Shown: positions 1-20,732 of the stretch, piece after piece
How positions within the stretch are numbered: the stretch's first letter is position 1
How the letters are laid out: each line of letters opens with the position of its first letter
Origin: a virus
Strand: one strand, 5' to 3'
Virus record (IMG/VR): IMGVR_UViG_3300006802_000755
Span: 1 to 20,732 of that record
Length of the DNA: 20,732 bases
Notes under the pieces: model-generated
The model's input: only the letters and a program-made list of their open reading frames with translations
The model's database searches: none
Told to the model about the DNA's origin: nothing
Made by a program: the position numbers and the translations under genes

Positions 1-3000
1 AGAGAAGCCCAATCATATACAGGTGGTAACTTAGATTTAATAGCCGGTGGGGCTTTTCTTGGCGGTATCGCCGGTCGGTTTGGTATAGAGCCTGCACTAG
101 CTCGTACCGTAGAGCAAAACGTAGCGCGTAAACTACTGGGGCGTGTTGTGCGGGGGGCTGCAGAAGAAGCGCTGCCTGAAGCAGCACAAGCGGGGCAGGA
201 ACAACTCGCTCAGAATATTGCCCTTCAAAGAGAGGGTTTTGACGTACCAACAGGACGCGGTGTTGCAGGGCAGGCTGCATTTGAAGGGCTTGCCGGGGCG
301 GGTATTGGTGCAGGTGTAGGGGCTATAAGGCCGGGGCGCGTAGAGGAACTCCCACCGGAGCCGATGCCGGAGCCGGAACCGGAACCGACACAAGAGGAAA
401 TACGGCGGCTAACATATAGCGGGGACTTAGACCCAAATACGCTATATGCTTCGGAGTCAGAGGACAGCGCGAGAGCTAGAGAGCGCGTAGCAGGGGCTGA
501 TGAATACCTTGCTGCTGTAAATGAACCGCCTATTACCCCCGAAGAATTTAGAAACATACCTCCTGATCTGTTTGCAGCGGACGGTACTGCCGATAGCGTT
601 GCTGAGTTTGTCCTGACACGTAGGAAGAGCGGGGCGAGAGCATCAGACGTAGGAGCACCAGACGTAACAGCACCGAGCCCTTCCCCGGAGGAGGCTCTTT
701 ACGAAGGTCTTACGGGGAATGCACCGCCAGTAGGCCGCCCGCGTCCGCCACCTAAGAAAGCCCCTGCTGCTTGGACGGAAGAAGATGAAACCGCTCTTAG
801 AGAGGCCAGAACTCTAAGAGATACAAACATAGAGGCCCAAGGTAGAGCTGAGTCTGAGGAAGCGTACCAAAACCGCTTTATGGCTCAAGAAGAAGCCCAG
901 CGTAGTGCTAGAGAAACCGTTACAGAGTTAGAAGCTCGTAAGGAAGCCGCAGCAGCCGCAGCCGCCAGACCATCTACGTTAGACTTGCAGCCGTCACAAG
1001 CAAGACCAAGAGCGCGTGTGCGCGGGCAAACTATAGAGCAAGAGCTTTCTACGTATATTAAAGCGCTGGGCGGCATACGTATAACTAGGGACCCTTCAGG
1101 TGGCCTTACTCCAGAAGGCCAAGAACTGCAGGCTCTTAAAGATAAAACCAAGAAACAAGGTGTGCTACGACCGAAGTCAGATAAGGGTATGTCTCCCGAG
1201 GATGCTCTCCGCCGACTGAAGGATGATAGGTGGTTATCGGAAGACGCCGACCTCAATGACATGTATGACCTTATAGATAGGTCCCTCAATGTCGAAGAAG
1301 GAGTGTACCACCCCGAAAGCTTCAAGGTTGCCGAGGGGGATAGGGGGCGTGGACTCATACCAGAGGAAGAAGTTGATAGGGACTTGGATGAGGTTCTGGC
1401 TACGCTGCCAGAAACAGGGCGGGCTGTTACCCCGGCAGAGAGAGCCACACTTCGCACTAAATATGTAGAGCGTGGCTACGACGCGGAAAGCGCCGTAGCT
1501 GAAATGTTAGAAGCACGGGGGCGGGCGGAAGAAACAGTAGCGGAAAGAAAGCCCACTGCAGAGGCTCCTACACCTGCGGCCCCTGCCGGTATGACTAGGC
1601 TGTACAGGATGGAAAGTACACCAGAACAGGTAGCTTCGGGACGTAATATCGCTGACTGGATCAAACAATCTCCTGTCTATCAAAATGCGGAGAAGGCGGG
1701 GGGGCGCTGGTTCACAGACGATTTGGATGAGATTAACTGGTACCGCCAACATGAATACCCTGAAGGGCGTATGGTATATGTCGATGTACCAACCGCTGAA
1801 GCTGAGAAATATAGAGTCAGCAACATTCCATTGAAACCCGGTGATAAAGACGTAGCTGACAATCCAAGAGCTTATTCCCGCCGCCCCGACAAAGAATTTT
1901 TTATACCCTCTGCGCTAGCCGCAGCGGCCAAACCCACACCTGCAGCTACACCCACACCTGAAGCTCCACCCACACTCGACGCTGCTGCAAACGAGCTAGC
2001 TGCTGCGCGTAACATAGCAAGCAACCTAGGCATTAAAAACGCCAACAGTATGGATAGGGAGCAACTCAATAACGCTATAAAAAACGCTAGAAGAAAAATA
2101 GATAGTAAAAATGAAGCGGCGCAAAAGTCTCAAGAAACGGATTATAAAGCGGTAGTAAATGCCGGTGGTGCGGGGCTGGGAAGAGGCACAAGAAAATACC
2201 GCAACTCTGCATCGGCACTTCCGTTCTTCCAAAGTATTTTAGGGGGGATGAAGTCCCCTACGCTAAGGGCAGTTCTATACTCCCTTACAACAAGCGACAT
2301 AGTGCGGTGGTTTAGAGGCAAACTACGAGACATAACGGTAGTTGATACGTTTATGAAGCGTATGGACAGCACTCGTAATAGGCTACTTAAAGAAATCGCA
2401 GCCGTGAGTCCGGACTGGGCTTCGTTGATTAGAACAGCTAAGAAGGATGCAGACGCTTTAGCAGACCTTTTTTACGACGCCACCATAAATAATATCGACC
2501 CTGAAGTTCGTGTGGTAAACCCTACGGCTACCGAACGGCGTGTGTATGCGCAGTACGACAACCTAGCTAAAAATGCAAAAGCGCTAGCTATATTCAAAAG
2601 TGTTAAGGAGCAAATGAATAGCGCTATCGACAAGCGTATAAAGCATATGCAAGACACTCTTAGAGCAGGTGGGTTTGACCAAGCGCAAATAAAGGCGGCT
2701 ACTGAGTTTCTAGAAATAATTAAAAAAGAACGAACTAGACTAAAGTTCTATTTCCCGCTGATGCGTTTTGGCCGCTACTGGGTTAGCTACAATAAAGGGA
2801 AAGACTTAGAGTTCCGTATGTTTGAGTCGTGGGCTGAGCGCGAAAGGTTTATGAAGTGGCGTACAGCGGAGGCTAAAGCTAACAACGAAGTCTTAGAAGA
2901 AACTGGGCGAGGGGACGACCCCAGCCAGTTGAGAGACTTGTTTGGTACCAATGTAGTCGATCAGAACTCGGCTATAGCTAAAGTTATGAAGGTACTAAAC

Positions 3001-5037
3001 GCCTCGGGTAGAAACCCGAATATAGATGAGCTTAAGGCGGATGTATTCCAGCTATACTTACAAACATTACCAGACGGTGATCTTAGAAAGCACCTTAAGC
3101 CAAGAAAAAATGTGCGGGGTTATAGCACTGACGCGCTTAGGACTTTTGTATCTCATCAGGTGAGCGTCTCAAATAATCTAGCTGCTCTTGAATACAAGTC
3201 CAAAGTCAGGGGTCACATACAGGGTATGTACGACCAGATAAGGGAGGAGTATGCCGGGACACCGGATATGGAGAAACTTCTCATAGTCGCAGGAGAAATG
3301 GCGGGTAGGGTAGAAAGAGCTTTCAGTCCTGCCGAGCTAGATGGTGTTGAGCAGTTTTTTGATAAGTTCGCTCGCTGGGGGAACCAGGCATCATTCTATT
3401 ACTTCCTAACTTCTGCAAGGACTGCGTTGATACAGTTAACGCAGGTCCCCATTGTGACGGCCCCTTTGCTGGCTAAAGAGTTTAAGATTTCTACAGCGCA
3501 GGCTAACGCTCTGCTGGCTAAACGAGTGTCTGGGAAGCTATACGATCTAGAGACGCACCTGCGTAGAGCGCCTAAAGAACTTAGAAAGGCTATAGAGGCT
3601 GCTTACAAAGAAGGAGACGATACGGGGGCGTTCGATACGGGGTACATATCCGATCTTACATATATGAAGCGAACCCACACTACGACATCTGAGTCTAGCT
3701 CATACGAGCGGTTAGGTAGGGGCGGTCAGTTTGCGCTTAAAGTTCTTCGGGGCGGGTTTCAGTACACCGAAAGCAGTTCAAGAAAACTCGCGTATATGAC
3801 TGCCTTTGAACTTGCGTATAAGCGTCTAATAGACGGAGGGGTGGACGCCGATACCGCTCAGGTACAAGCTCAAGACACTGCGGAATCTGTAATGCTTGAG
3901 TCCTTGTTTGATTATAGGCAGTGGAATAAGCCCAGACTTATGACTGCTACAGGGGCCAAGCTGGGTACGCAATTCTTGACGTATCCGTTACAGATGTATT
4001 CGTTGCTTGCACGTAACTTTTATAACCAACTAAAACGGTCTGGGTTATCTAAAGAAGAACGTAGAGCCGCCCGTAGTACGCTGGCCGGTGTTTTGCTGAC
4101 GACTGGGCTGTTCGGTGGTGTAACTGCTTTGCCGCTCTTCAGTGTAGCCCTAGGCGTGCTGGATATGCTAAGCGATGCTACTGAGGATGATGACGACCCA
4201 AGAGACCCGCTCAACCATCGTAGTTGGGAGCTTTGGTTTCGTAACGAGTGGCTCCCCCAAACCTTCGGTACAGGTAGCGGCATAGCTAGAACCTTTGGTC
4301 TCGGCGAAGATCAGAGTCGGTTGTTGGAACGCGCGGTTTTATATGGGCCTGTGTCGGCCATAACAGGGCTCGATATTTCTTCGTCCGTGTCGCTGGATAA
4401 CATCTTCTTTGGTCGGTTTGACGTAGGTTCGGTGGATAAAGAAGGTCTGGAAAACTTAGTATACGCAAATGCACTTGGGCCTTTCGGGGGTATGCTGGCT
4501 AATTGGACTACCGCTGCTTCGGACTTTAGCGACGGGGAATACCTGAGAGGATTTGAAAACATACTGCCTTCCGCCCTTAAACAACCGCTACGCGCCTATA
4601 GATACGGAACCGAGGGCAACCTGACCCGTCGGGGGGATACGGTGCGGAGCCGTGAGTTCTACACTGTTGGGCGGCTAGCAACCCAAGTCCTAGGCTTTAC
4701 TCCGACAGAAGTAAAAGAGAAGTACGATGTCGATGAGTTGGTGTACACCATTACAGAAGAAGCAAATAGCCGTAAATATGACGCTCTGGACGCAATAAAC
4801 AAAGCGCTCGAAGATTACGGGCAGGACAGCCCAGAGTTCGACAGAGCTATACAGGAAGCCCGTGCGTATTCACAGGCCAACCCTAACGACCCTATAACCT
4901 ACGAGAGTATACAGACTTCTGTTAACGGGCGGATACGAAACCGTGTTCTGGCAGAGATGGGCGGCGGCAGGTACCAAGCCCCGCGATGGTTGCCCCGTAC
5001 AATGGCTGAGACAGACCGCTACAAAGAAAGAAAATAA
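1..5037 (+). CDS. Giant phage polyvalent protein with PLxRFG motif (5' partial)
   Basis: The frame is open from base 1 to the TAA at 5035-5037, so the gene begins outside the window; at least 1678 codons are present. Codons below count from base 1. Glycine-rich hydrophobic patches lie near codons 13-28 and 90-110. Acidic and Ala/Pro-rich linkers follow. An ART-like segment is at about 531-640. The signature PLMRFG is at 919-924, followed by a conserved-looking region (LTSARTALIQLTQVP, then KLGTQFLTYPLQMYSLLARN). A hydrophobic stretch near 1359-1390 is followed by an acidic run (DATEDDDDPRDP), resembling C-terminal large-polyvalent-protein domains. Proteins of this type are known as very large phage proteins thought to be packaged and injected with the DNA. 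Role as an ejected internal virion protein is inference. It is the only rightward gene and converges on the replication block. Confidence 0.85.
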   Translation, partial: REAQSYTGGNLDLIAGGAFLGGIAGRFGIEPALARTVEQNVARKLLGRVVRGAAEEALPEAAQAGQEQLAQNIALQREGFDVPTGRGVAGQAAFEGLAGAGIGAGVGAIRPGRVEELPPEPMPEPEPEPTQEEIRRLTYSGDLDPNTLYASESEDSARARERVAGADEYLAAVNEPPITPEEFRNIPPDLFAADGTADSVAEFVLTRRKSGARASDVGAPDVTAPSPSPEEALYEGLTGNAPPVGRPRPPPKKAPAAWTEEDETALREARTLRDTNIEAQGRAESEEAYQNRFMAQEEAQRSARETVTELEARKEAAAAAAARPSTLDLQPSQARPRARVRGQTIEQELSTYIKALGGIRITRDPSGGLTPEGQELQALKDKTKKQGVLRPKSDKGMSPEDALRRLKDDRWLSEDADLNDMYDLIDRSLNVEEGVYHPESFKVAEGDRGRGLIPEEEVDRDLDEVLATLPETGRAVTPAERATLRTKYVERGYDAESAVAEMLEARGRAEETVAERKPTAEAPTPAAPAGMTRLYRMESTPEQVASGRNIADWIKQSPVYQNAEKAGGRWFTDDLDEINWYRQHEYPEGRMVYVDVPTAEAEKYRVSNIPLKPGDKDVADNPRAYSRRPDKEFFIPSALAAAAKPTPAATPTPEAPPTLDAAANELAAARNIASNLGIKNANSMDREQLNNAIKNARRKIDSKNEAAQKSQETDYKAVVNAGGAGLGRGTRKYRNSASALPFFQSILGGMKSPTLRAVLYSLTTSDIVRWFRGKLRDITVVDTFMKRMDSTRNRLLKEIAAVSPDWASLIRTAKKDADALADLFYDATINNIDPEVRVVNPTATERRVYAQYDNLAKNAKALAIFKSVKEQMNSAIDKRIKHMQDTLRAGGFDQAQIKAATEFLEIIKKERTRLKFYFPLMRFGRYWVSYNKGKDLEFRMFESWAERERFMKWRTAEAKANNEVLEETGRGDDPSQLRDLFGTNVVDQNSAIAKVMKVLNASGRNPNIDELKADVFQLYLQTLPDGDLRKHLKPRKNVRGYSTDALRTFVSHQVSVSNNLAALEYKSKVRGHIQGMYDQIREEYAGTPDMEKLLIVAGEMAGRVERAFSPAELDGVEQFFDKFARWGNQASFYYFLTSARTALIQLTQVPIVTAPLLAKEFKISTAQANALLAKRVSGKLYDLETHLRRAPKELRKAIEAAYKEGDDTGAFDTGYISDLTYMKRTHTTTSESSSYERLGRGGQFALKVLRGGFQYTESSSRKLAYMTAFELAYKRLIDGGVDADTAQVQAQDTAESVMLESLFDYRQWNKPRLMTATGAKLGTQFLTYPLQMYSLLARNFYNQLKRSGLSKEERRAARSTLAGVLLTTGLFGGVTALPLFSVALGVLDMLSDATEDDDDPRDPLNHRSWELWFRNEWLPQTFGTGSGIARTFGLGEDQSRLLERAVLYGPVSAITGLDISSSVSLDNIFFGRFDVGSVDKEGLENLVYANALGPFGGMLANWTTAASDFSDGEYLRGFENILPSALKQPLRAYRYGTEGNLTRRGDTVRSREFYTVGRLATQVLGFTPTEVKEKYDVDELVYTITEEANSRKYDALDAINKALEDYGQDSPEFDRAIQEARAYSQANPNDPITYESIQTSVNGRIRNRVLAEMGGGRYQAPRWLPRTMAETDRYKERK
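1933..1986 (+). repeat. 18-base tandem repeat in a Pro/Ala linker
   Basis: Three consecutive 18-base units (starting 1933, 1951 and 1969), each beginning CCCACAC, encode PTPAAT, PTPEAP and PTLDAA. The units degenerate from left to right. They lie just after the ART-like segment of the giant protein and look like an in-frame flexible linker made by unit duplication. Confidence 0.7.
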
Positions 5038-5064: not shown

Positions 5065-5259
5065 TTATATACGCCAAGCTCGTATACCTTTAACGCCGTG
5101 CTCTATAACTGCCTTTACAAACATAGTGAGTCCTCTTTCACTTGCTTCCTTGGACACCCGTTGTGTAGCGGAGTCTTGATCTAAGCAAGGTATGAAAAAA
5201 GATTCTCCTAGCTTTAGAGCACGCCACTTCAGGCGGTACTTAATTCCCTCCACCAGCAT
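5065..5259 (-). CDS. Small phage protein, 64 aa, function unknown
   Basis: This is the last gene of the leftward block. Its ATG at 5259 overlaps the end of the primase-helicase gene by 20 bases, and it stops just before the terminator hairpin. The protein starts MLVEGIKYRLKWRALKLGES, continues with FFIPCLDQDS, and ends GVKGIRAWRI. The pattern 'W-x-L-x-x-GESFFIP' followed later by an R/K-rich body and a terminal 'GIRAWRI' strand resembles small proteins common in phage replication regions, which have no known biochemical role. The SD upstream of the ATG is weak, so translation is probably coupled to the upstream gene. The GTG at 5253 is an alternative start. Confidence 0.6.
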   Translation of the reverse strand: MLVEGIKYRLKWRALKLGESFFIPCLDQDSATQRVSKEASERGLTMFVKAVIEHGVKGIRAWRI

Positions 5260-8197
5260 CTGCTACTTTCTCATCCGCTAGCGTTTCTGGGTCTGGGCGG
5301 ACACCATCAAAATACGAAGACTTCATATCCAACACTAAACATTTAGACAGCACAGAGGGGCCGTCCATCCCCTTGCCCATATGCTTACTGAAGTCCCTCG
5401 CTAACAACACTCCCTGCCGCTTAAGCTCTGCAAGAGTATCTTTGTAATTGATCTGTCTAGAGGAGCAGAACCTTTTGAACTCTCCCGTAGCCACAAACAA
5501 CTTAAATGTGTCAGGCTCATACCGTAGGAACAACGGGCCTTTAGGTTCGCGAAGCGGTGGGTTGGACATATTGTGCCTCGCGTTAACCGTACCGTCCACG
5601 ATCAGGAGGTTCTGAATGTGTCGGTTTATGTAGTCTCCGACTGTTCCAGCGCAAGACATGATGGGGGGAGTAACTTCATCTCTCAGTTCTGATACCTGAG
5701 ACTTCAGCCACTTCATAATAGGAGCGAAATCCCAGTCAATAAGCTCCAACTTTTTAGCAATAAGCCCACCGACGAGGTTACAAGCGAAGACATCGGACCA
5801 AAACCGTTCACGGGGCGTTAACTCAAGGTGCTTGTCTATGTACGCCTGAGTCCGTTTTAGTTCTTCTTTTATGCTCTCCACGTTGTCTACTAAGTACTGG
5901 ATGTACACCGGCCCAGCCAGACCGTAATTCTCCATGAGCTGATGGTCAAACATTTCCTTACCGAGGTCGCGGTCTATGGCGGTGTTCATCTCGATCTTAG
6001 CTTCGATTATCCGCATCTTCTCGCCGTCCGGATCGCTTTTTGCCGTAGACAGCTTTTCATAGAAGGAGGCGTTTGAACTGCACAGGGTTATGGATTGCCA
6101 CCTCGTGTTGTTATCACGCAGCTTGTTAGCCCCGTTAGTCATCCGATCTTTACCAACCCCCTGGGAGGCTGCGTAGGCAAGCGAAGAAAATTCTTCCGCC
6201 GACATATTCGTAATTTCATCCAGTGCATTATGCAGGTGGTTGTTTACACCAAACTTAAAAATAGTAGCGTTGAGTGTGTCATCCTTAGAACTACACAAGT
6301 CTTTCGGTGCGCCATACACGCTATTAGCCATGTGCAGAATGGTGGTCTTGCCCGTACCTGACCGGGGATGGATTAAGTTGATGAGCGCCCCGCTGTGCCC
6401 CGTAAACTTAAATAGTGGGGAGCCAAAAGCTGTAAGCATCCCAAACGCCGCCGCTTCCATACCGGAGCGGCCATAAAGCTTTGCTACTTCTTTCCACTTG
6501 TCCAAAGAGCCCTTCTCGTGGATAAAAGCCGCCCTGGCTTCTGTGGCGGAAGACGGTGGGCTATGGAACACCCCGTCTTTTGTATATTCCTTATCACCCA
6601 GTACAAACTTAGTGTCACTATCCATCCATCCAAATTGCAGTCTCATTTTTTCGGCCTCCTGTTGCCATTGTAGTGCGCTCAATGACGCAGATAAGTATCT
6701 AAATAATCGCTCAAACTCTTTCTTCATCCCGCAAACTACTCCCTGTTCAGCTAGTGAAGTCCGGAGTTTATCTATGTTCGCTAAACTAGAGTTGGGCAGT
6801 ATGAAAGTTCGAACACCGTCTTTTGGTAAATGCAGTCGCATAACAACTACTTCTTTATCCACGGGGTCAAACATCCGTTTCACTATGTATAGGTCGTGTG
6901 CGTAGACCTCGACTACATCGCCGTCTTCGGTCTCCATGTATATGCCGCCACCCGCACCTCTAACGTACCCTGTCGGCATCTTAGGGATGAAGTTCTTAGC
7001 CACCCAATCTACTGGTATGTCTACAGAGTCTTTCTTAACTTCTTCCGGCTCGTCGTCCGGTTCGTCGCAACGAAGTATTTTGTGCTGGTCTGGGTCCGCA
7101 GCTATTACCCGTTTAGCGAGAGCAATAGGGGAGCCAACTTTATTTTTATAGGGGCACCCTTTGCATCCCCCCGGATTGTCTGCCTCGAACGTAGCGCAGC
7201 GATGCGGCTCCTTAGTGGACGCAGCAATTTTTTCGGTCTCTACTGGATTATAGTCTTTATAACCCTTTGACAGCGTGTGGATCGCAGTGTCTCTGTCTTC
7301 ACACTGGGTTGCTATGGATAGGGCGTGCCACCACTGGTTATAAGTTAGTGACTCCCTATTTAGGAACGCCTCCTTTATTTGCCTACAGCCTGCGTCCTTC
7401 AAGCTGCGCTGCATGAGCCCTTTGAAGCTATGGGCTATGGACTCTTGCTGCTTCTTAAACAGGGGGCTTTCAGCCCTCCTACGAGCGTGCTTATCCTCCT
7501 TAGCTTCCTGCTTCTTTATTTTTTTCTGCTTAACCTCTACAGCAACGTCTAAATCTATGCCTAATAAGTCTGCAAGTTCCTGCGCCGTAATAGGATTTAC
7601 TTCTTCCTTTAGTACGGTAACCGGAAGCGGGGTCTCCCCTTTATAGTTTAGACTGTTCGGAACACGAAGTATTCGCGCGGTTTCAAAAACCGCTCTATCG
7701 ACGTAGAACTGCTGCACCCTGCAGATTTCTGCCAGTTTGTCGGCAATAGTTTCCCATAAAGTTGGCCCTATTGCTTCTTCTAATATCCAGTAGGCGTGTA
7801 TGCCGCGCCCAGAGTTAACTATGACTGGTACGGGGAGCCCAACTAATTCACAGAACTCTTCCAGAGCTTCTAGGGCGGCATCTTGGGTTAAGTAGCCTTG
7901 AGGTACACCAGTCTTTGGGTCGGGTGTGCCTTTGTCAGGGCCGCAGTCTATGTCTACCCAGAAGGATTTTAACGCTGCTACGTTATCTTTACGTCTATTT
8001 TCACCAGACTTGTACTTAGCAACGCCAAAGAACACGTTACGCTTTTGCGCTACAAATCTAGCTATAACCTCGGCGGCTTCCTCGCGGGTCTGTACTAACT
8101 TCTGACTAGTGCTCTGCGTCCCATCACCACTAATACCCACAATGGCAAACCAGCCTTCTTCGGGCTGTACTGCCTGTAGTAGATCAAATGAGGACAT
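5240..8197 (-). CDS. Primase-polymerase (AEP type) fused to a P-loop helicase, 985 aa
   Basis: The N-terminal domain carries the three motifs of archaeo-eukaryotic-type primases: FWVDIDCG with D82 and D84, SGRGIHAYW with H134, and D167 followed by ARILRVPNSLNYKG. A middle region (about 285-350) has a C-rich knuckle, CATF...NPGGCKGCPYK (C334, C345, C348), typical of PriCT/zinc-binding linkers. The C-terminal half has Walker A PRSGTGKTT (about 611-619) and Walker B NALDE (D660, E661), resembling DUF927-type or superfamily 3-like phage helicases. It probably unwinds the fork and makes primers, possibly longer strands. ATG at 8197 is preceded by AGGGG six bases upstream. Primase activity is family knowledge; the exact helicase family is less certain. 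Confidence 0.85.
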   Translation of the reverse strand: MSSFDLLQAVQPEEGWFAIVGISGDGTQSTSQKLVQTREEAAEVIARFVAQKRNVFFGVAKYKSGENRRKDNVAALKSFWVDIDCGPDKGTPDPKTGVPQGYLTQDAALEALEEFCELVGLPVPVIVNSGRGIHAYWILEEAIGPTLWETIADKLAEICRVQQFYVDRAVFETARILRVPNSLNYKGETPLPVTVLKEEVNPITAQELADLLGIDLDVAVEVKQKKIKKQEAKEDKHARRRAESPLFKKQQESIAHSFKGLMQRSLKDAGCRQIKEAFLNRESLTYNQWWHALSIATQCEDRDTAIHTLSKGYKDYNPVETEKIAASTKEPHRCATFEADNPGGCKGCPYKNKVGSPIALAKRVIAADPDQHKILRCDEPDDEPEEVKKDSVDIPVDWVAKNFIPKMPTGYVRGAGGGIYMETEDGDVVEVYAHDLYIVKRMFDPVDKEVVVMRLHLPKDGVRTFILPNSSLANIDKLRTSLAEQGVVCGMKKEFERLFRYLSASLSALQWQQEAEKMRLQFGWMDSDTKFVLGDKEYTKDGVFHSPPSSATEARAAFIHEKGSLDKWKEVAKLYGRSGMEAAAFGMLTAFGSPLFKFTGHSGALINLIHPRSGTGKTTILHMANSVYGAPKDLCSSKDDTLNATIFKFGVNNHLHNALDEITNMSAEEFSSLAYAASQGVGKDRMTNGANKLRDNNTRWQSITLCSSNASFYEKLSTAKSDPDGEKMRIIEAKIEMNTAIDRDLGKEMFDHQLMENYGLAGPVYIQYLVDNVESIKEELKRTQAYIDKHLELTPRERFWSDVFACNLVGGLIAKKLELIDWDFAPIMKWLKSQVSELRDEVTPPIMSCAGTVGDYINRHIQNLLIVDGTVNARHNMSNPPLREPKGPLFLRYEPDTFKLFVATGEFKRFCSSRQINYKDTLAELKRQGVLLARDFSKHMGKGMDGPSVLSKCLVLDMKSSYFDGVRPDPETLADEKVADAGGGN

Positions 8198-17072: not shown

Positions 17073-17375
17073 CTATCCGGTTCTATCTCTGGCATCCCCA
17101 TCAATAGAAAAAATCTGAGAAACTACACGCCGCGAGAACGCTTCACCTTGGATGGTGCAGAGTTTGGCGTACAGCAAATCAATGTCTTCTTTTGGTATGA
17201 AGAAGAGCTGACTGTCAATAGGCACTGACTGCGAGGGGTAAAAGACTGTACGGAGCAACGCATCTACAAACCAGTGCCACTTACAAGCTAGCCCCCCACC
17301 GACACCCCACTGGAACTCTTCTGGGTGCGTTTCCATACGCTTCATTATAACTTCGACGCCTAGGTTCTTCTCCAT
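17073..17375 (-). CDS. Phage protein, 100 aa, function unknown
   Basis: The ATG at 17375 overlaps the preceding stop (TGATG) and gives a 100-residue protein; longer in-frame starts lie inside the VRR-NUC gene and are less likely. It has EEFQWGVGGGLACKWHWFVD and a later FFIPKEDIDLLYAKL near the C terminus, ending in FSRRVVSQIFSIDGDARDRTG-like charged sequence. No domain is recognised. Position directly between a structure-specific nuclease and the DNA polymerase suggests a replication accessory or nuclease partner. Confidence 0.65.
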   Translation of the reverse strand: MEKNLGVEVIMKRMETHPEEFQWGVGGGLACKWHWFVDALLRTVFYPSQSVPIDSQLFFIPKEDIDLLYAKLCTIQGEAFSRRVVSQIFSIDGDARDRTG

Positions 17376-17671
17376 CACTCTAACACCTCTAGGAGAACCG
17401 CCCGTAAAGAAGTCACATCTGAGCCGCATTGCAACCACGCGAGGCCCCCGGCGTTTTTTATTTGCGTTAATTCTTGCTGTTGCAGAGCGGTCGGTTTGTT
17501 TGTTCCGGCTTTACACTCAATGCCGATAAACCTCCCCCGAGCACAGGCTATAACATCGGGGACGCCTGAGCGACCAAAACCGTGTGTCTGCGGGAAAAAA
17601 TAATACACCTCAAGTTCGCGCAGCAACTTAGTTACTGCGTCTTTAACTTTACCTTCCGGTGTTCTTGCCAT
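17375..17671 (-). CDS. VRR-NUC domain nuclease, 98 aa
   Basis: This is a complete, compact VRR-NUC domain. It has an N-terminal helix (EGKVKDAVTKLLRELE), catalytic GVPDVI (D39) and GIECKAG (E52, K54), and then TALQQQELTQIKNAGG with the glutamine pair. This nuclease family is related to Holliday-junction resolvases and is common in phage replication modules, where it resolves or trims branched DNA. The ATG at 17671 has GAGGGAG upstream. It is the first gene after the regulatory gap, so it is probably the promoter-proximal gene of the operon. Confidence 0.9.
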   Translation of the reverse strand: MARTPEGKVKDAVTKLLRELEVYYFFPQTHGFGRSGVPDVIACARGRFIGIECKAGTNKPTALQQQELTQIKNAGGLAWLQCGSDVTSLRAVLLEVLE

Positions 17672-17724: not shown

Positions 17725-17757
17725 AAAAAACCCCCCGGTGAGTGGGACACCGGGGGG
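17725..17757 (-). terminator. Strong intrinsic terminator for the rightmost leftward operon
   Basis: A 10-bp GC-rich stem (17731-17740 with 17748-17757) and a 7-base loop are followed leftward by TTTTTT (17725-17730). This is a textbook Rho-independent terminator for genes 17813-20732. A weak second stem-loop lies just before it in the transcript. Confidence 0.88.
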
Positions 17758-17765
17758 CCAAGTTA

Positions 17766-17812: not shown

Positions 17813-18709
17813 TTATAACTCCTGATCCATGTTTGCAATAGTGTAAAAAGTATCTCCGTTCTGGGACCTCCACTTATTGCCGACATCAAGAACATACGCG
17901 CTGGGCGACTTTTGCAGCTTGAGCATACCCAGTCCGTACTTCACCCAAGCCGGAAGCTCGGACTCTGTTAAAGGACTAAACTCCTTTGCGTCGGGTAAAG
18001 TTTTTGGAACTTCTTTATGTGTACAAACATAATAAGTGTCTTCCTCTATAACTACCGTGGCAAAAGATTTAGCTGCGGTAAGCATACTACTCCACGCTTC
18101 GTAGTCAGAAGCCTTCGACTGTAAGACCTCCAGTACCTCCGCTGGTGGAGGGGAGGGAATCTGCCCTAACATTTGCAAGCGTTGCTTAAGGGTCAGAGAT
18201 GCAAGATGCTTTTCCAAACTTTGCCTAAAGCTACGGTCGAAATCAGAAAGTTTGTTGAAGCTGTATACGTCGAGCCTTTCAATCGACGCTCTATTTATCC
18301 GTTCCTGCATATTGAACTGCTTAACGAACTTGCAAATCTTAGCCACAGCAATCTTGTGGTGGGAAGTGCGAATGGCTGCAGTATAGTTGTTAAGCTCGCT
18401 CGCCAGCGGAGACTCAACCTTGTAGTGCTTGTTGTTGCGGCCCCACCCCTCGCGGTCACTCACATCGCAAGAACCCATCTTTGACCCATTGCTCCCAAGG
18501 AAGGCGATCTTACAGCGCGCCCTATCGTTAAAGCTATAGGGGGTAAACACGATGCTCCAGTCCTTGCGTCGCCTACTTACCGCGACAGCCAAGTCCCAAG
18601 CGCGAGGAAATATAGAGGGTACGGTAGCCGCGTCACCCTTCCACTCGACGCTAAACTTAGGCCGGTCGGGCCATGGGTATGCGACGTTAGTTTTATTGTC
18701 CGTATTCAT
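17813..18709 (-). CDS. Phage protein, 298 aa, function unknown
   Basis: ATG at 18709 with AAGGAG upstream. The N-terminal part is Trp/Pro-rich (AYPWPDRPKF, FPRAWDLAVAVSRRRKDWSI), the middle is basic and helical (KHYKVESPLASELNNYTAAI, then SFRQSLEKHLASLTLKQRLQ), and the C-terminal third is β-rich with YYVCTHKEVPKTLPD and a terminal DTFYTIANMDQEL. No catalytic motif, zinc site or membrane segment is visible. It is the last gene of the operon containing the VWA-like protein and ends just before the terminator region, so it probably works with the three genes before it. Confidence 0.8.
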   Translation of the reverse strand: MNTDNKTNVAYPWPDRPKFSVEWKGDAATVPSIFPRAWDLAVAVSRRRKDWSIVFTPYSFNDRARCKIAFLGSNGSKMGSCDVSDREGWGRNNKHYKVESPLASELNNYTAAIRTSHHKIAVAKICKFVKQFNMQERINRASIERLDVYSFNKLSDFDRSFRQSLEKHLASLTLKQRLQMLGQIPSPPPAEVLEVLQSKASDYEAWSSMLTAAKSFATVVIEEDTYYVCTHKEVPKTLPDAKEFSPLTESELPAWVKYGLGMLKLQKSPSAYVLDVGNKWRSQNGDTFYTIANMDQEL

Positions 18710-18745
18710 TTCAGCTCTCCTTTCCGTTGCAATGCAACTCTACCC

Positions 18746-19600
18746 TTACCAATAACCCTTCAGGATATCGTCCACGCGGACCTTAACGTCCGCACGTTGT
18801 GTTGCGCTGTCCTTGATGTCGTCGATATCTAGGCCAGACAACGCCGCCTCAAGGTCGGCCCGCGCACGCTCAAGCTGCGGGTCTTTCGTTATGTTGAGGT
18901 GACCCAACAGATCGCACAGCTCGCGCGGGTTCTCTAGGAACGTGTCGTAGTAGCGTTTCTCCTGCCCCTCAACATCCGTCAGCTTGTCAGACATTGTGGT
19001 TAGCATCTTATGCAGACGGTCCCACGCATCCTGAGTCGCTTCCTTCAGCCGCTCGTTGAAGTTGTCCTCGTACCCACGTCGCATGTCGTCCAAGTCCTCC
19101 TGCGGGATATCCAACCGGAAGTCGCCGCTGTCCGGCAGAGGGCTGAACACAAGCCGTACACCGAACCGCCCCCGTATCTCACTAGCGTCGGGGTAGTCGG
19201 ACGGGTTGAACATGTAGCCTAAGCCCGTGGACTTAGCTTGGACCTGCTGCACCAAGTCGGGGTAGCGGCTCACGAACTTATCGACCAACGCATTGAAACC
19301 GTCGATACGGTCGTTCATCGCCGCCTTGTAATCGAACACGGCAGACACCGGGAGCAATCGCGGCCCACGGTCTAACCAGGGTAGCGTCCGCCAGAGGTGG
19401 AATTGCCGCAACGATGCTGAGAACTTGCGGATATCGTCGAGCATCTTAGTGCCCGCCATTAAATCCTTCTGCACACGCGCAGCGTTACGGGTAGCTTGGT
19501 TGTCAGTATTCACCTTGTCTGTCTGACCACGATCTAACTTCGTAGCCGTCCAGCAAGAGATATTGAGTTCAGTCAAAATTGCAGCGTTATTAATAGACAT
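18746..19600 (-). CDS. Helical phage protein, 284 aa, function unknown
   Basis: ATG at 19600 with GAAGGAG upstream. It starts MSINNAAILTELNISCWTAT, which is characteristic of a phage protein group found near MoxR/VWA-like genes and sometimes labelled DUF3150-like; that label is from memory and not proven here. The middle contains RFGVRLVFSPLPDSGDFRLD, and the rest is largely charged helix (ERLKEATQDAWDRLHKMLTT). No catalytic residues are evident. Position suggests a partner of the VWA-like protein, perhaps an adaptor in a chaperone- or protease-type complex. Confidence 0.8.
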   Translation of the reverse strand: MSINNAAILTELNISCWTATKLDRGQTDKVNTDNQATRNAARVQKDLMAGTKMLDDIRKFSASLRQFHLWRTLPWLDRGPRLLPVSAVFDYKAAMNDRIDGFNALVDKFVSRYPDLVQQVQAKSTGLGYMFNPSDYPDASEIRGRFGVRLVFSPLPDSGDFRLDIPQEDLDDMRRGYEDNFNERLKEATQDAWDRLHKMLTTMSDKLTDVEGQEKRYYDTFLENPRELCDLLGHLNITKDPQLERARADLEAALSGLDIDDIKDSATQRADVKVRVDDILKGYW

Positions 19601-19626
19601 AGTTCTTCTCCTTCGTTTCTAATCAG

Positions 19627-19878
19627 TTACTCGGTTGGTTCACCGGCCAACTTGGCCGTTAGGTAAAGCTCATGCGGCACTAACTCGACCGTCATAGTAT
19701 CGGCGCTGTCCTGCCAGACATGATAGGTGGAGTCTTTGCCCGAACGATACTTACGCTCGTACCGCTCGGCCCTGTCTAGGATACTCGTGAGCAGCGCCGC
19801 GTCCTCTATCGGCATGATGTAGTCCTTGTAGCCGATATGCACCACCGCTCGACGACCTGTCCCTTCTTTAATACTCAT
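19627..19878 (-). CDS. Small phage protein, 83 aa, function unknown
   Basis: ATG at 19878, with GGAGGAG six bases upstream lying over the end of the VWA-like gene. The protein begins MSIKEGTGRRAVVHIGYKDY and has a helix (DAALLTSILDRAERYERKYR) followed by a short β-like section (MTVELVPHELYLTAKLAGEP). No signature of a known family is seen. It is tightly placed between the VWA-like protein and the 284-residue protein and is probably co-translated with them. Confidence 0.72.
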   Translation of the reverse strand: MSIKEGTGRRAVVHIGYKDYIMPIEDAALLTSILDRAERYERKYRSGKDSTYHVWQDSADTMTVELVPHELYLTAKLAGEPTE

Positions 19879-19881
19879 TGC

Positions 19882-20732
19882 TTACTCCTCCGTATTGACG
19901 TGAATGGTCTGACCCGTGGTTGCATTGCAACCCTTGTTGTTGATGATGACCCACAGGACGGGGCACGGCCACATGCCACCCCAGTCATCGCCGACTTCGC
20001 CATCGGTAAACACAACAGCACACGCTGGCTTAATCCGCTTCTCCTCCAGATACTTGGTGACACACGACGGACGTGTACCGCCGCCACCCATAGGTCTGCT
20101 TTTGGTTGCGAACGTATCCAGTTCATCCTGCTCGTAGGTTTCGTGCCGCTGCACATCGTAGTCCCAGTAGATGAGATCGACCCGCTCCGGACGTACCGCT
20201 TGCATGGCACCGGACACACCACCCAGTATGAGTTTCATATCCTCAGGGTTACCCCAGATGGAACCGGACAAGTCTGACGCGAACACCACAGGCCCAAGGC
20301 TTATGGCTTCGGAGCCAGCAAAAACACAGTCGTCCGATAGCCCCATCAGGCGACGATTAGGTCTAGCGTAAGTGGACTCGTCCCGGCCAGAGCAATTACT
20401 GGACATGAACTGGAGCAGAGCATCGCGCCATGCCACCCGTGGGGTGACGAGATCATCAATAAGCCCACTTAGTCCACCAGCACCCTTACCGCAGAACCGC
20501 TTGTGGTTTTGAGCGCCCTTGTTAAGTGCATCTTCAACATCCTCCTTAAGCTTTTCCTTCTCCTCATCCGACATTTCGGAGGCACCATCCCAGTCGTGGT
20601 CGTCGAACCCATTGGGTTGTTTGGTGCTAGGTGTGCGCGGTCCTTTACCACCTCCACTACCTCCGCCGCCTTCTTCACCTTCCTCACCTTCCTCACCTTC
20701 CTCACCTTCTTCACCTTCCTCCTGCTCTTTGA
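19882..20732 (-). CDS. VWA-like / putative metallopeptidase protein (5' partial)
   Basis: The frame is open to the right edge, so the N-terminal part is outside the window. A repetitive GEE/GGG linker is followed by a charged helix and a von Willebrand A-like domain. It carries FASDLSGSIW (MIDAS-type DxSxS), GGGGTRPSCV (threonine metal ligand) and VVFTDGEVGDDWGG (TDGE). This layout fits the DUF2201 VWA-like family, whose members normally carry a metallopeptidase-like domain at the N terminus. Such proteins often pair with a MoxR-type AAA ATPase, which could lie just outside the window. The function in phages is not established. It is the most upstream gene seen in its operon. Confidence 0.82.
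   Translation of the reverse strand, partial: KEQEEGEEGEEGEEGEEGEEGGGGSGGGKGPRTPSTKQPNGFDDHDWDGASEMSDEEKEKLKEDVEDALNKGAQNHKRFCGKGAGGLSGLIDDLVTPRVAWRDALLQFMSSNCSGRDESTYARPNRRLMGLSDDCVFAGSEAISLGPVVFASDLSGSIWGNPEDMKLILGGVSGAMQAVRPERVDLIYWDYDVQRHETYEQDELDTFATKSRPMGGGGTRPSCVTKYLEEKRIKPACAVVFTDGEVGDDWGGMWPCPVLWVIINNKGCNATTGQTIHVNTEE
20671..20715 (-). repeat. 9-base tandem repeat encoding GEE units
   Basis: Five consecutive 9-base units (starting 20671, 20680, 20689, 20698 and 20707) of the form TTC-C/T-TCACC encode repeated G-E-E in the minus frame, plus a partial sixth unit. They form a highly acidic flexible linker before a Gly-rich stretch in the VWA-like protein. Slippage can change copy number without shifting frame. 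Confidence 0.85.

What the first reader, a model, noticed from the sequence alone, without database searches (positions are those of the whole stretch)
17813..20732. Four-gene VWA-like cassette with its own strong terminator
A VWA-like/metallopeptidase-type protein, a small protein and two large unknown proteins form one compact operon. VWA-like proteins usually work with MoxR ATPases as chaperone or protease systems. The phage role is unknown: anti-defence, host takeover or particle assembly are all possible. This is the best candidate in the window for an undescribed system.
Basis: partly seen in the sequence, partly recalled or inferred. Interest (0 to 1): 0.62.

Follow-up and report, generated by a model that had tools for sequence, protein, structure and literature searches.

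The report
Phage AAA+/metallopeptidase-VWA remodelling operon
A phage operon, cut off at the window edge, encodes the metallopeptidase-VWA half of an ATP-driven protein-remodelling machine plus three partner proteins; its ATPase lies just outside the window and the gene set recurs in nearly the same order in dozens of uncultured phages, so it is real and important to them, although what it acts on is unknown.

Summary
In detail: four packed minus-strand ORFs (VWA 19882-20730, cut by the window edge; 83, 284 and 298 aa), each internal start behind a clear ribosome-binding site, then a strong terminator. A 99%-identical contig (L001) supplies what was missing: a MoxR/midasin-type AAA+ ATPase directly upstream and a complete 448-aa VWA protein with an HExxH metallopeptidase domain. 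With polA, a downstream gene outside the operon, as independent bait, 20/20 viral loci carry the VWA and 284-aa genes, 19/20 the 298-aa gene, 17/20 the ATPase. Catalytic residues are essentially invariant. The ATPase + metallopeptidase-VWA pair is known (phage N4 gp24/gp25; jumbo phages). The 284-aa protein is DUF3150-related; the same ATPase-DUF3150-VWA triad sits on conjugative plasmids, and in MAG contigs near Rad52-like or Sak4-like genes, which argues against a purely virion-assembly role. The 298-aa protein belongs to a family with no database match and has dN/dS 3-4 times that of its neighbours. Most likely this is a core ATP-driven protein-remodelling (perhaps proteolytic) machine of the replication/takeover phase, target unknown. 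New variant of a known kind.

The parts
19882..20730 (-). C-terminal 282 aa of the HExxH-VWA protein (DUF2201_N/DUF2201), MIDAS D..S.S-T-D present; N-terminal part with HExxH lies outside the window (full 448 aa in L001:9503-10849)
   Evidence: Pfam DUF2201 1.2e-08 and DUF2201_N 4.4e-08; full form; invariant residues
19627..19878 (-). 83-aa small protein, conserved directly after the VWA gene; weak phrog_4367 match
   Evidence: leave-out profile E 1e-22
18746..19600 (-). 284-aa DUF3150-related protein, third member of the ATPase-DUF3150-VWA triad
   Evidence: MinM2 DUF3150 match 5e-32; plasmid triads; leave-out profile 1e-120
17813..18709 (-). 298-aa protein (p298), new fast-evolving family next to or downstream of the DUF3150-related gene, C-terminal GMLKL...GVGxR-type motif
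   Evidence: 66 of 66 loci with enough downstream sequence, leave-out profile E 5e-17, model pTM 0.74, dN/dS
17729..17759 (-). intrinsic terminator that ends the operon
17375..17671 (-). conserved neighbour, not part of the cassette: Hjc/VRR-NUC-like endonuclease, 98 aa
15211..17052 (-). conserved neighbour, not part of the cassette: family A DNA polymerase

Best explanation
The genes are the 3' part of a core phage operon for an ATP-driven protein-remodelling machine. A MoxR/midasin-type AAA+ ATPase, encoded just outside the window, is expected to form the ring motor; the HExxH-VWA protein (DUF2201) is expected to dock on the ring, hold a target through its MIDAS metal site, and possibly cut it. 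The DUF3150-related protein is the dedicated third subunit. The 83-aa protein and the fast-evolving p298 are phage-lineage partners, p298 being the best candidate for the subunit that recognises the target or is itself acted on. The machine works in the replication/host-takeover phase on a complex connected with DNA metabolism rather than in building the virion. SHOWN: gene set, order, conservation, invariant catalytic residues, plasmid triads, evolutionary rates. INFERRED from NorQ/NorD, RavA/ViaA and midasin: ring formation, docking, remodelling. GUESSED: the target, the role of p298, and whether proteolysis occurs.
For: ATPase beside the VWA gene in L001 and relatives; ATPase profile matches midasin 1.5e-23 and CbbQ/NorQ about 1e-6; Walker, sensor and Arg-finger-like residues, HExxH plus N..D and MIDAS residues invariant or nearly so in 58-73 relatives at about 40% mean identity and in N4-like and cyanophage members. 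Core module with polA as independent bait. Located in the replication arm, on the strand opposite to the structural genes of the sister contig. The same ATPase-DUF3150-VWA triad on plasmids, three of the four inspected typed conjugative. MAG contigs place the triad near a Rad52-like or a Sak4-like AAA_24 gene. N4 gp24/gp25 are core genes and middle transcripts (PMC4193335, PMC7650795). Mechanistic precedent NorQ/NorD (PMC9976466).
Against: No interaction, ATPase or protease activity has been tested. Pfam AAA_5 is below its cut-off for this ATPase (18.0 against 22 bits). Nothing identifies the target. DNA-metabolism linkage rests on gene neighbourhood only. The p298 role rests on rate and linkage, and fast evolution may be relaxed constraint.
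Confidence: 0.6

Rival explanations
1. Virion assembly: the ATPase and metallopeptidase-VWA protein fold and process structural proteins during morphogenesis, as proposed for group 2.2 jumbo phages and for the two-tailed archaeal virus ATV.
For: Published proposal for the same ATPase + metallopeptidase-vWA architecture (PMC7824862); a peptidase domain would suit processing of structural proteins.
Against: The operon is in the replication arm on the strand opposite to terminase, portal and tail genes; the triad occurs on conjugative plasmids, which make no virions; the N4 pair is transcribed with the middle genes (PMC4193335), although that paper also reports virion proteins encoded near these genes in a roseophage.
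Confidence: 0.17
2. Anti-defence or host takeover: the machine removes or inactivates a specific host protein, with p298 as the fast-changing target-recognition subunit.
For: p298 dN/dS 0.30 against 0.07-0.12 for the other genes measured; 12 non-synonymous and 0 synonymous changes between sister phages; the core triad is shared by phages and conjugative plasmids, both of which enter hosts as foreign DNA.
Against: The module is present in essentially all members of the clade, beside polA, unlike typical accessory anti-defence islands; p298 was not found in the plasmid triads; most variable positions across the family lie in the helical hairpin, not in the beta domains where the sister-phage changes fall, which also fits relaxed constraint.
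Confidence: 0.18
3. A phage-borne MoxR-vWA ternary conflict system used against competing phages, related in plan to the VMAP/iSTAND systems.
For: Same general plan: MoxR + vWA + a dedicated third component, with peptidase domains in the system (PMC7159879, PMC12839542).
Against: The third component here is DUF3150-related and the VWA protein has an N-terminal metallopeptidase-like domain instead of variable C-terminal effectors; no convincing PADLOC match; core conservation beside polA does not fit a defence island.
Confidence: 0.03

Closest known systems
Phage N4 gp24 (AAA+ ATPase) and gp25 (vWFA / DUF2201), Schitoviridae core genes
   Same: Homologous ATPase and HExxH-VWA protein in the same order, all catalytic residues shared; core in their clade (PMC4193335, PMC7650795)
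   Different: In the two N4-like loci inspected there is no DUF3150-related or p298 gene nearby; proteins only 21-33% identical; function unassigned there too
MoxR-vWA pair of group 2.2 jumbo phages (metallopeptidase fused to vWA)
   Same: Same two-protein architecture (PMC7824862)
   Different: Proposed for virion assembly; no DUF3150/p298 partners mentioned in the passage read
ATPase-DUF3150-VWA triad of Burkholderiales/Rhodovastum plasmids and of Synechococcus phage MinM2
   Same: Three homologous proteins, adjacent or close
   Different: Order ATPase-DUF3150-VWA; no p298; function unknown
NorQ/NorD, RavA/ViaA, CbbQ/CbbO and midasin
   Same: MoxR/dynein-related AAA+ motor working with a MIDAS-bearing VWA domain (PMC9976466)
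   Different: The phage VWA protein carries an HExxH domain; the cellular targets known for those systems have no counterpart identified here

Membership tests
MoxR AAA+/VWA chaperone pair | AAA+ ATPase with Walker A, Walker B, sensor 1 and Arg finger | tested here: met
   G43/G46/G48/K49, D118 E119, N158, R175 invariant apart from one G43S in up to 58 relatives; sensor/finger assignment by position is inferred
MoxR AAA+/VWA chaperone pair | Closest relatives in the MoxR/dynein-related branch | tested here: met
   Profile best matches midasin 1.5e-23; CbbQ and NorQ 1e-6 to 2e-5; but single-sequence Pfam AAA_5 18.0 bits, below the 22-bit cut-off; no tree was built
MoxR AAA+/VWA chaperone pair | Adjacent VWA protein with intact MIDAS (DxSxS-T-D) | tested here: met
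   D319, S321, S323, T385, D409 invariant; ATPase present in 34/34 VWA-baited loci
MoxR AAA+/VWA chaperone pair | Physical complex and ATP-driven remodelling | not testable with these tools
   needs protein work
DUF2201 (metallopeptidase + VWA-like) | Scores above the curated cut-offs of PF13203 and PF09967 | tested here: met
   L001 full protein 77.8 and 35.4 bits against 23.2 and 26.4
DUF2201 (metallopeptidase + VWA-like) | Active zinc peptidase | not testable with these tools
   HExxH plus N111 and D115 invariant; activity unknown
DUF3150 (Pfam PF11348) | Scores above the PF11348 cut-off | tested here: not met
   no hit for the phage proteins; even the plasmid relative annotated DUF3150 scores 22.1 against 24.9. 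Filed only as DUF3150-related
DUF3150 (Pfam PF11348) | Homology to proteins annotated DUF3150 in the same gene context | tested here: met
   MinM2 5e-32; virus-only profile hits the plasmid proteins at 1e-42 to 1e-58
N4-like phages (Schitoviridae) | Giant virion RNA polymerase and N4-type core gene set | tested here: inconclusive
   The large virion protein matches DarB-like families, not vRNAP; polA is closest to Rhizobium phage TM3_14A and Pseudomonas phage KPP25; the whole sister contig was not scanned
VMAP / iSTAND MoxR-vWA ternary conflict systems | Third component VMAP-C or iSTAND; variable effector domains on the vWA protein | tested here: inconclusive
   No such Pfam or PADLOC match, but dedicated VMAP/iSTAND models were not at hand

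The most novel reading that the evidence does not exclude
A phage-encoded AAA+ unfoldase/metalloprotease whose conserved engine (ATPase, HExxH-VWA, DUF3150-related subunit), shared with conjugative plasmids, is steered by a fast-evolving phage subunit (p298) to dismantle a specific host or replication-fork protein.
Probability: 0.25. Interest if true: 0.8.

Novelty: new variant of a known kind. Interest (0 to 1): 0.5.

Why it matters
N4 gp24/gp25 have been listed as core genes of a large phage family with no assigned function. This clade shows the same pair inside a larger fixed unit, and shows that the core triad also lives on conjugative plasmids and, in some contigs, next to recombination genes. 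That narrows the possible functions away from virion building alone, names further subunits (DUF3150-related, p298), and makes direct tests possible in simple laboratory systems.

Tried and rejected
Pfam, NCBIfam, PHROGs and PADLOC scans of the 298-aa and 284-aa proteins gave only chance-level hits. Fold searches with both models gave no match at E below 0.001; the weak E2-enzyme-like and Mediator-like rows for p298 (best Z 6.8) are within the range stated as common for unrelated folds. PF11348 was sought directly in 14 phage records and not found, so DUF3150 is claimed only as relatedness through intermediates. Profile searches of solved structures with the DUF3150-related and VWA alignments gave nothing useful. 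I first read the 12:0 substitution pattern of p298 as a fast-changing binding surface on the beta domains; over the family the helical hairpin varies most, so that reading was dropped. The E-value of the window p298 against a profile that included its near-twin was replaced by a leave-out test. An alignment of all DUF3150 relatives was too diverse to drive a collection search. dN/dS of the small gene is not used, because many of its ORF starts run into the VWA gene. Literature searches for SXT/ICE cobS linkage and MoxR-Rad52 linkage gave nothing that was used.

Full report
WHAT IS THERE. The right end of the window carries four minus-strand ORFs in the order VWA (19882-20730, cut by the window end), 83 aa (19627-19878), 284 aa (18746-19600) and 298 aa (17813-18709). 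Gaps are 3, 26 and 36 nt and each internal start has a strong ribosome-binding site. A 12-pair G+C-rich hairpin with a T run ends the operon at 17759-17729 (the region folds with z-score -5.6), and it is nearly unchanged in the sister contig L001. The window is itself a whole record of a virus fragment, so the sequence to the right had to come from a relative.

THE MISSING PARTNER. Contig L001 (IMG/VR, 60 kb) is 99% identical over the aligned part. It shows the full VWA protein (448 aa) and, 43 nt upstream of it, a 378-aa P-loop protein with Walker A GESGIGKS. The family profile of this ATPase matches midasin best (1.5e-23), and the MoxR proteins CbbQ and NorQ at about 1e-6. The full VWA protein scores above the Pfam cut-offs for DUF2201_N (putative metallopeptidase) and DUF2201 (VWA-like); it has HENLH at residue 86 and a MIDAS at 319. 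In 58-73 relatives the nucleotide-binding, zinc-site and MIDAS residues tested are invariant wherever the column is present, apart from one G-to-S change at G43 of the ATPase, while mean column identity is about 40%. Both enzymatic halves are therefore under strong constraint.

CONSERVED LINKAGE. Three baits were used. With the DUF3150-related protein as bait, the best 80 of 276 viral loci were fetched. Of 46 with enough upstream sequence, all have VWA, 45 the ATPase and 34 a recognisable small gene; of 66 with enough downstream sequence, all have p298. With VWA as bait, 34/34 loci have the ATPase, 33/34 the DUF3150-related gene and 34/34 p298. With polA, which is not part of the operon, 20/20 loci with 8 kb upstream have VWA and the DUF3150-related gene, 19/20 p298 and 17/20 the ATPase; in the three without an ATPase the stored sequence begins at or near the VWA gene. 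Some loci repeat near-identical phages and each bait returns the closest relatives first, so these are not independent samples of all phages. The dominant order is ATPase-VWA-small-DUF3150-p298; in some loci ATPase and VWA are swapped, and in some other genes lie between DUF3150 and p298. This is a core module of a large clade of uncultured phages.

THE UNKNOWN PROTEINS. The 284-aa protein matches, at 5e-32, a protein of Synechococcus phage MinM2 annotated DUF3150, which sits between a MoxR ATPase and a VWA gene. The MinM2 protein in turn finds 42 plasmids, mostly of Burkholderiales. In the four inspected the order is ATPase, DUF3150-type, VWA, with the ATPase further upstream in one; three of the four are typed conjugative. 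A profile built only from viral sequences hits these plasmid proteins at 1e-42 to 1e-58. The Pfam model itself does not match the phage protein, so 'DUF3150-related' is the right term. The 298-aa protein has no family match; a good model (pLDDT 79.5, pTM 0.74) shows mixed alpha/beta parts at both ends and a long helical hairpin between, without a convincing fold match.

EVOLUTIONARY RATE. Between window and L001, p298 has 12 non-synonymous and no synonymous codon changes, against 14 and 25 in five other genes (Fisher p 9e-5). Across 15 further pairs its median dN/dS is 0.30, against 0.07 (ATPase), 0.10 (VWA), 0.08 (DUF3150-related), 0.12 (endonuclease) and 0.11 (polA), and it exceeds the DUF3150 value in 15 of 15 pairs. 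This is fast evolution. Whether it is adaptive is not settled: family-wide the helical hairpin varies most, which can also mean weak constraint.

CONTEXT AND FUNCTION. In the sister contig the terminase, portal and tail genes lie on the strand opposite to this operon. The operon lies in the replication arm with a Hjc-like endonuclease, polA, a PD-(D/E)XK nuclease, an SNF2 helicase and a DUF927 primase-helicase-like protein. In MAG contigs the ATPase and DUF3150-type genes, with VWA where the sequence continues, follow a Rad52-like gene (L111, Tenebribacter) or a Sak4-like AAA_24 gene (L112, Armatimonadetes); whether these contigs are chromosomal, plasmid or viral was not determined. N4 gp24 and gp25, the homologous pair, are core genes and middle transcripts (PMC4193335, PMC7650795). 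Together this favours a role in the DNA-replication/takeover phase.

MECHANISM. In NorQ/NorD the VWA domain is modelled as plugging the AAA+ ring, its MIDAS is needed for activity and proposed to bind the target, and ATP hydrolysis drives remodelling (PMC9976466). The same plan is the most economical reading here, with the HExxH domain adding possible proteolysis. A published proposal for the jumbo-phage pair is virion assembly with proteolytic processing (PMC7824862). The plasmid triads, the replication-arm location and the N4 timing speak against that as the shared role, but do not exclude it in this phage.

NOVELTY. The ATPase/metallopeptidase-VWA pair is known. The fixed association with a DUF3150-related protein, a small protein and p298, and the sharing of the triad with plasmids, were not found in the library searched: no paper held contains 'DUF3150'. 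That is a limited search, as most subscription papers are missing. I rate it a new variant of a known kind, interest 0.5.

Noticed in passing
L011:5464-6564, L012:5503-6612 (homologues of the window VWA protein, which hits phrog_1314): phrog_1314 is labelled 'HNH endonuclease', and several N4-like phage records carry that name for this protein, but members hit only DUF2201_N/DUF2201 in Pfam. The label is probably a misannotation that spread.
   Followed up: partly
L111:2268-5979, L112:795-8466: In MAG contigs the ATPase-DUF3150(-VWA) genes lie downstream of a Rad52-like gene (PF04098, L111) or a Sak4-like AAA_24 gene (L112), suggesting a link to single-strand annealing recombination.
   Followed up: partly
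L112:4495-5982: The ATPase ORF is 495 aa and appears to hold an insert that starts like an intein (ACFVRNTRISTASGEKFIQDMQIGDRV) in the motor domain; judged by eye only.
   Followed up: no
L009:5507-6388 and 6385-6732 (also L008, L010): Two overlapping consecutive ORFs both match the p298 profile weakly: the p298 gene may be duplicated or split, with the C-terminal motif on a separate 115-aa protein.
   Followed up: no
L058, L060, L066, L069, L071, L092: In these loci the ATPase and VWA genes are in swapped order (VWA-ATPase-DUF3150).
   Followed up: no
window 1-5037 (+): Large virion-type protein (1678 aa, open at the window start) with matches to DarB-like antirestriction and other giant phage proteins.
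   Followed up: no
window 5240-8197 (-): 985-aa protein with a DUF927 domain and primase/helicase-like PHROG matches, the likely primase-helicase of this phage.
   Followed up: no
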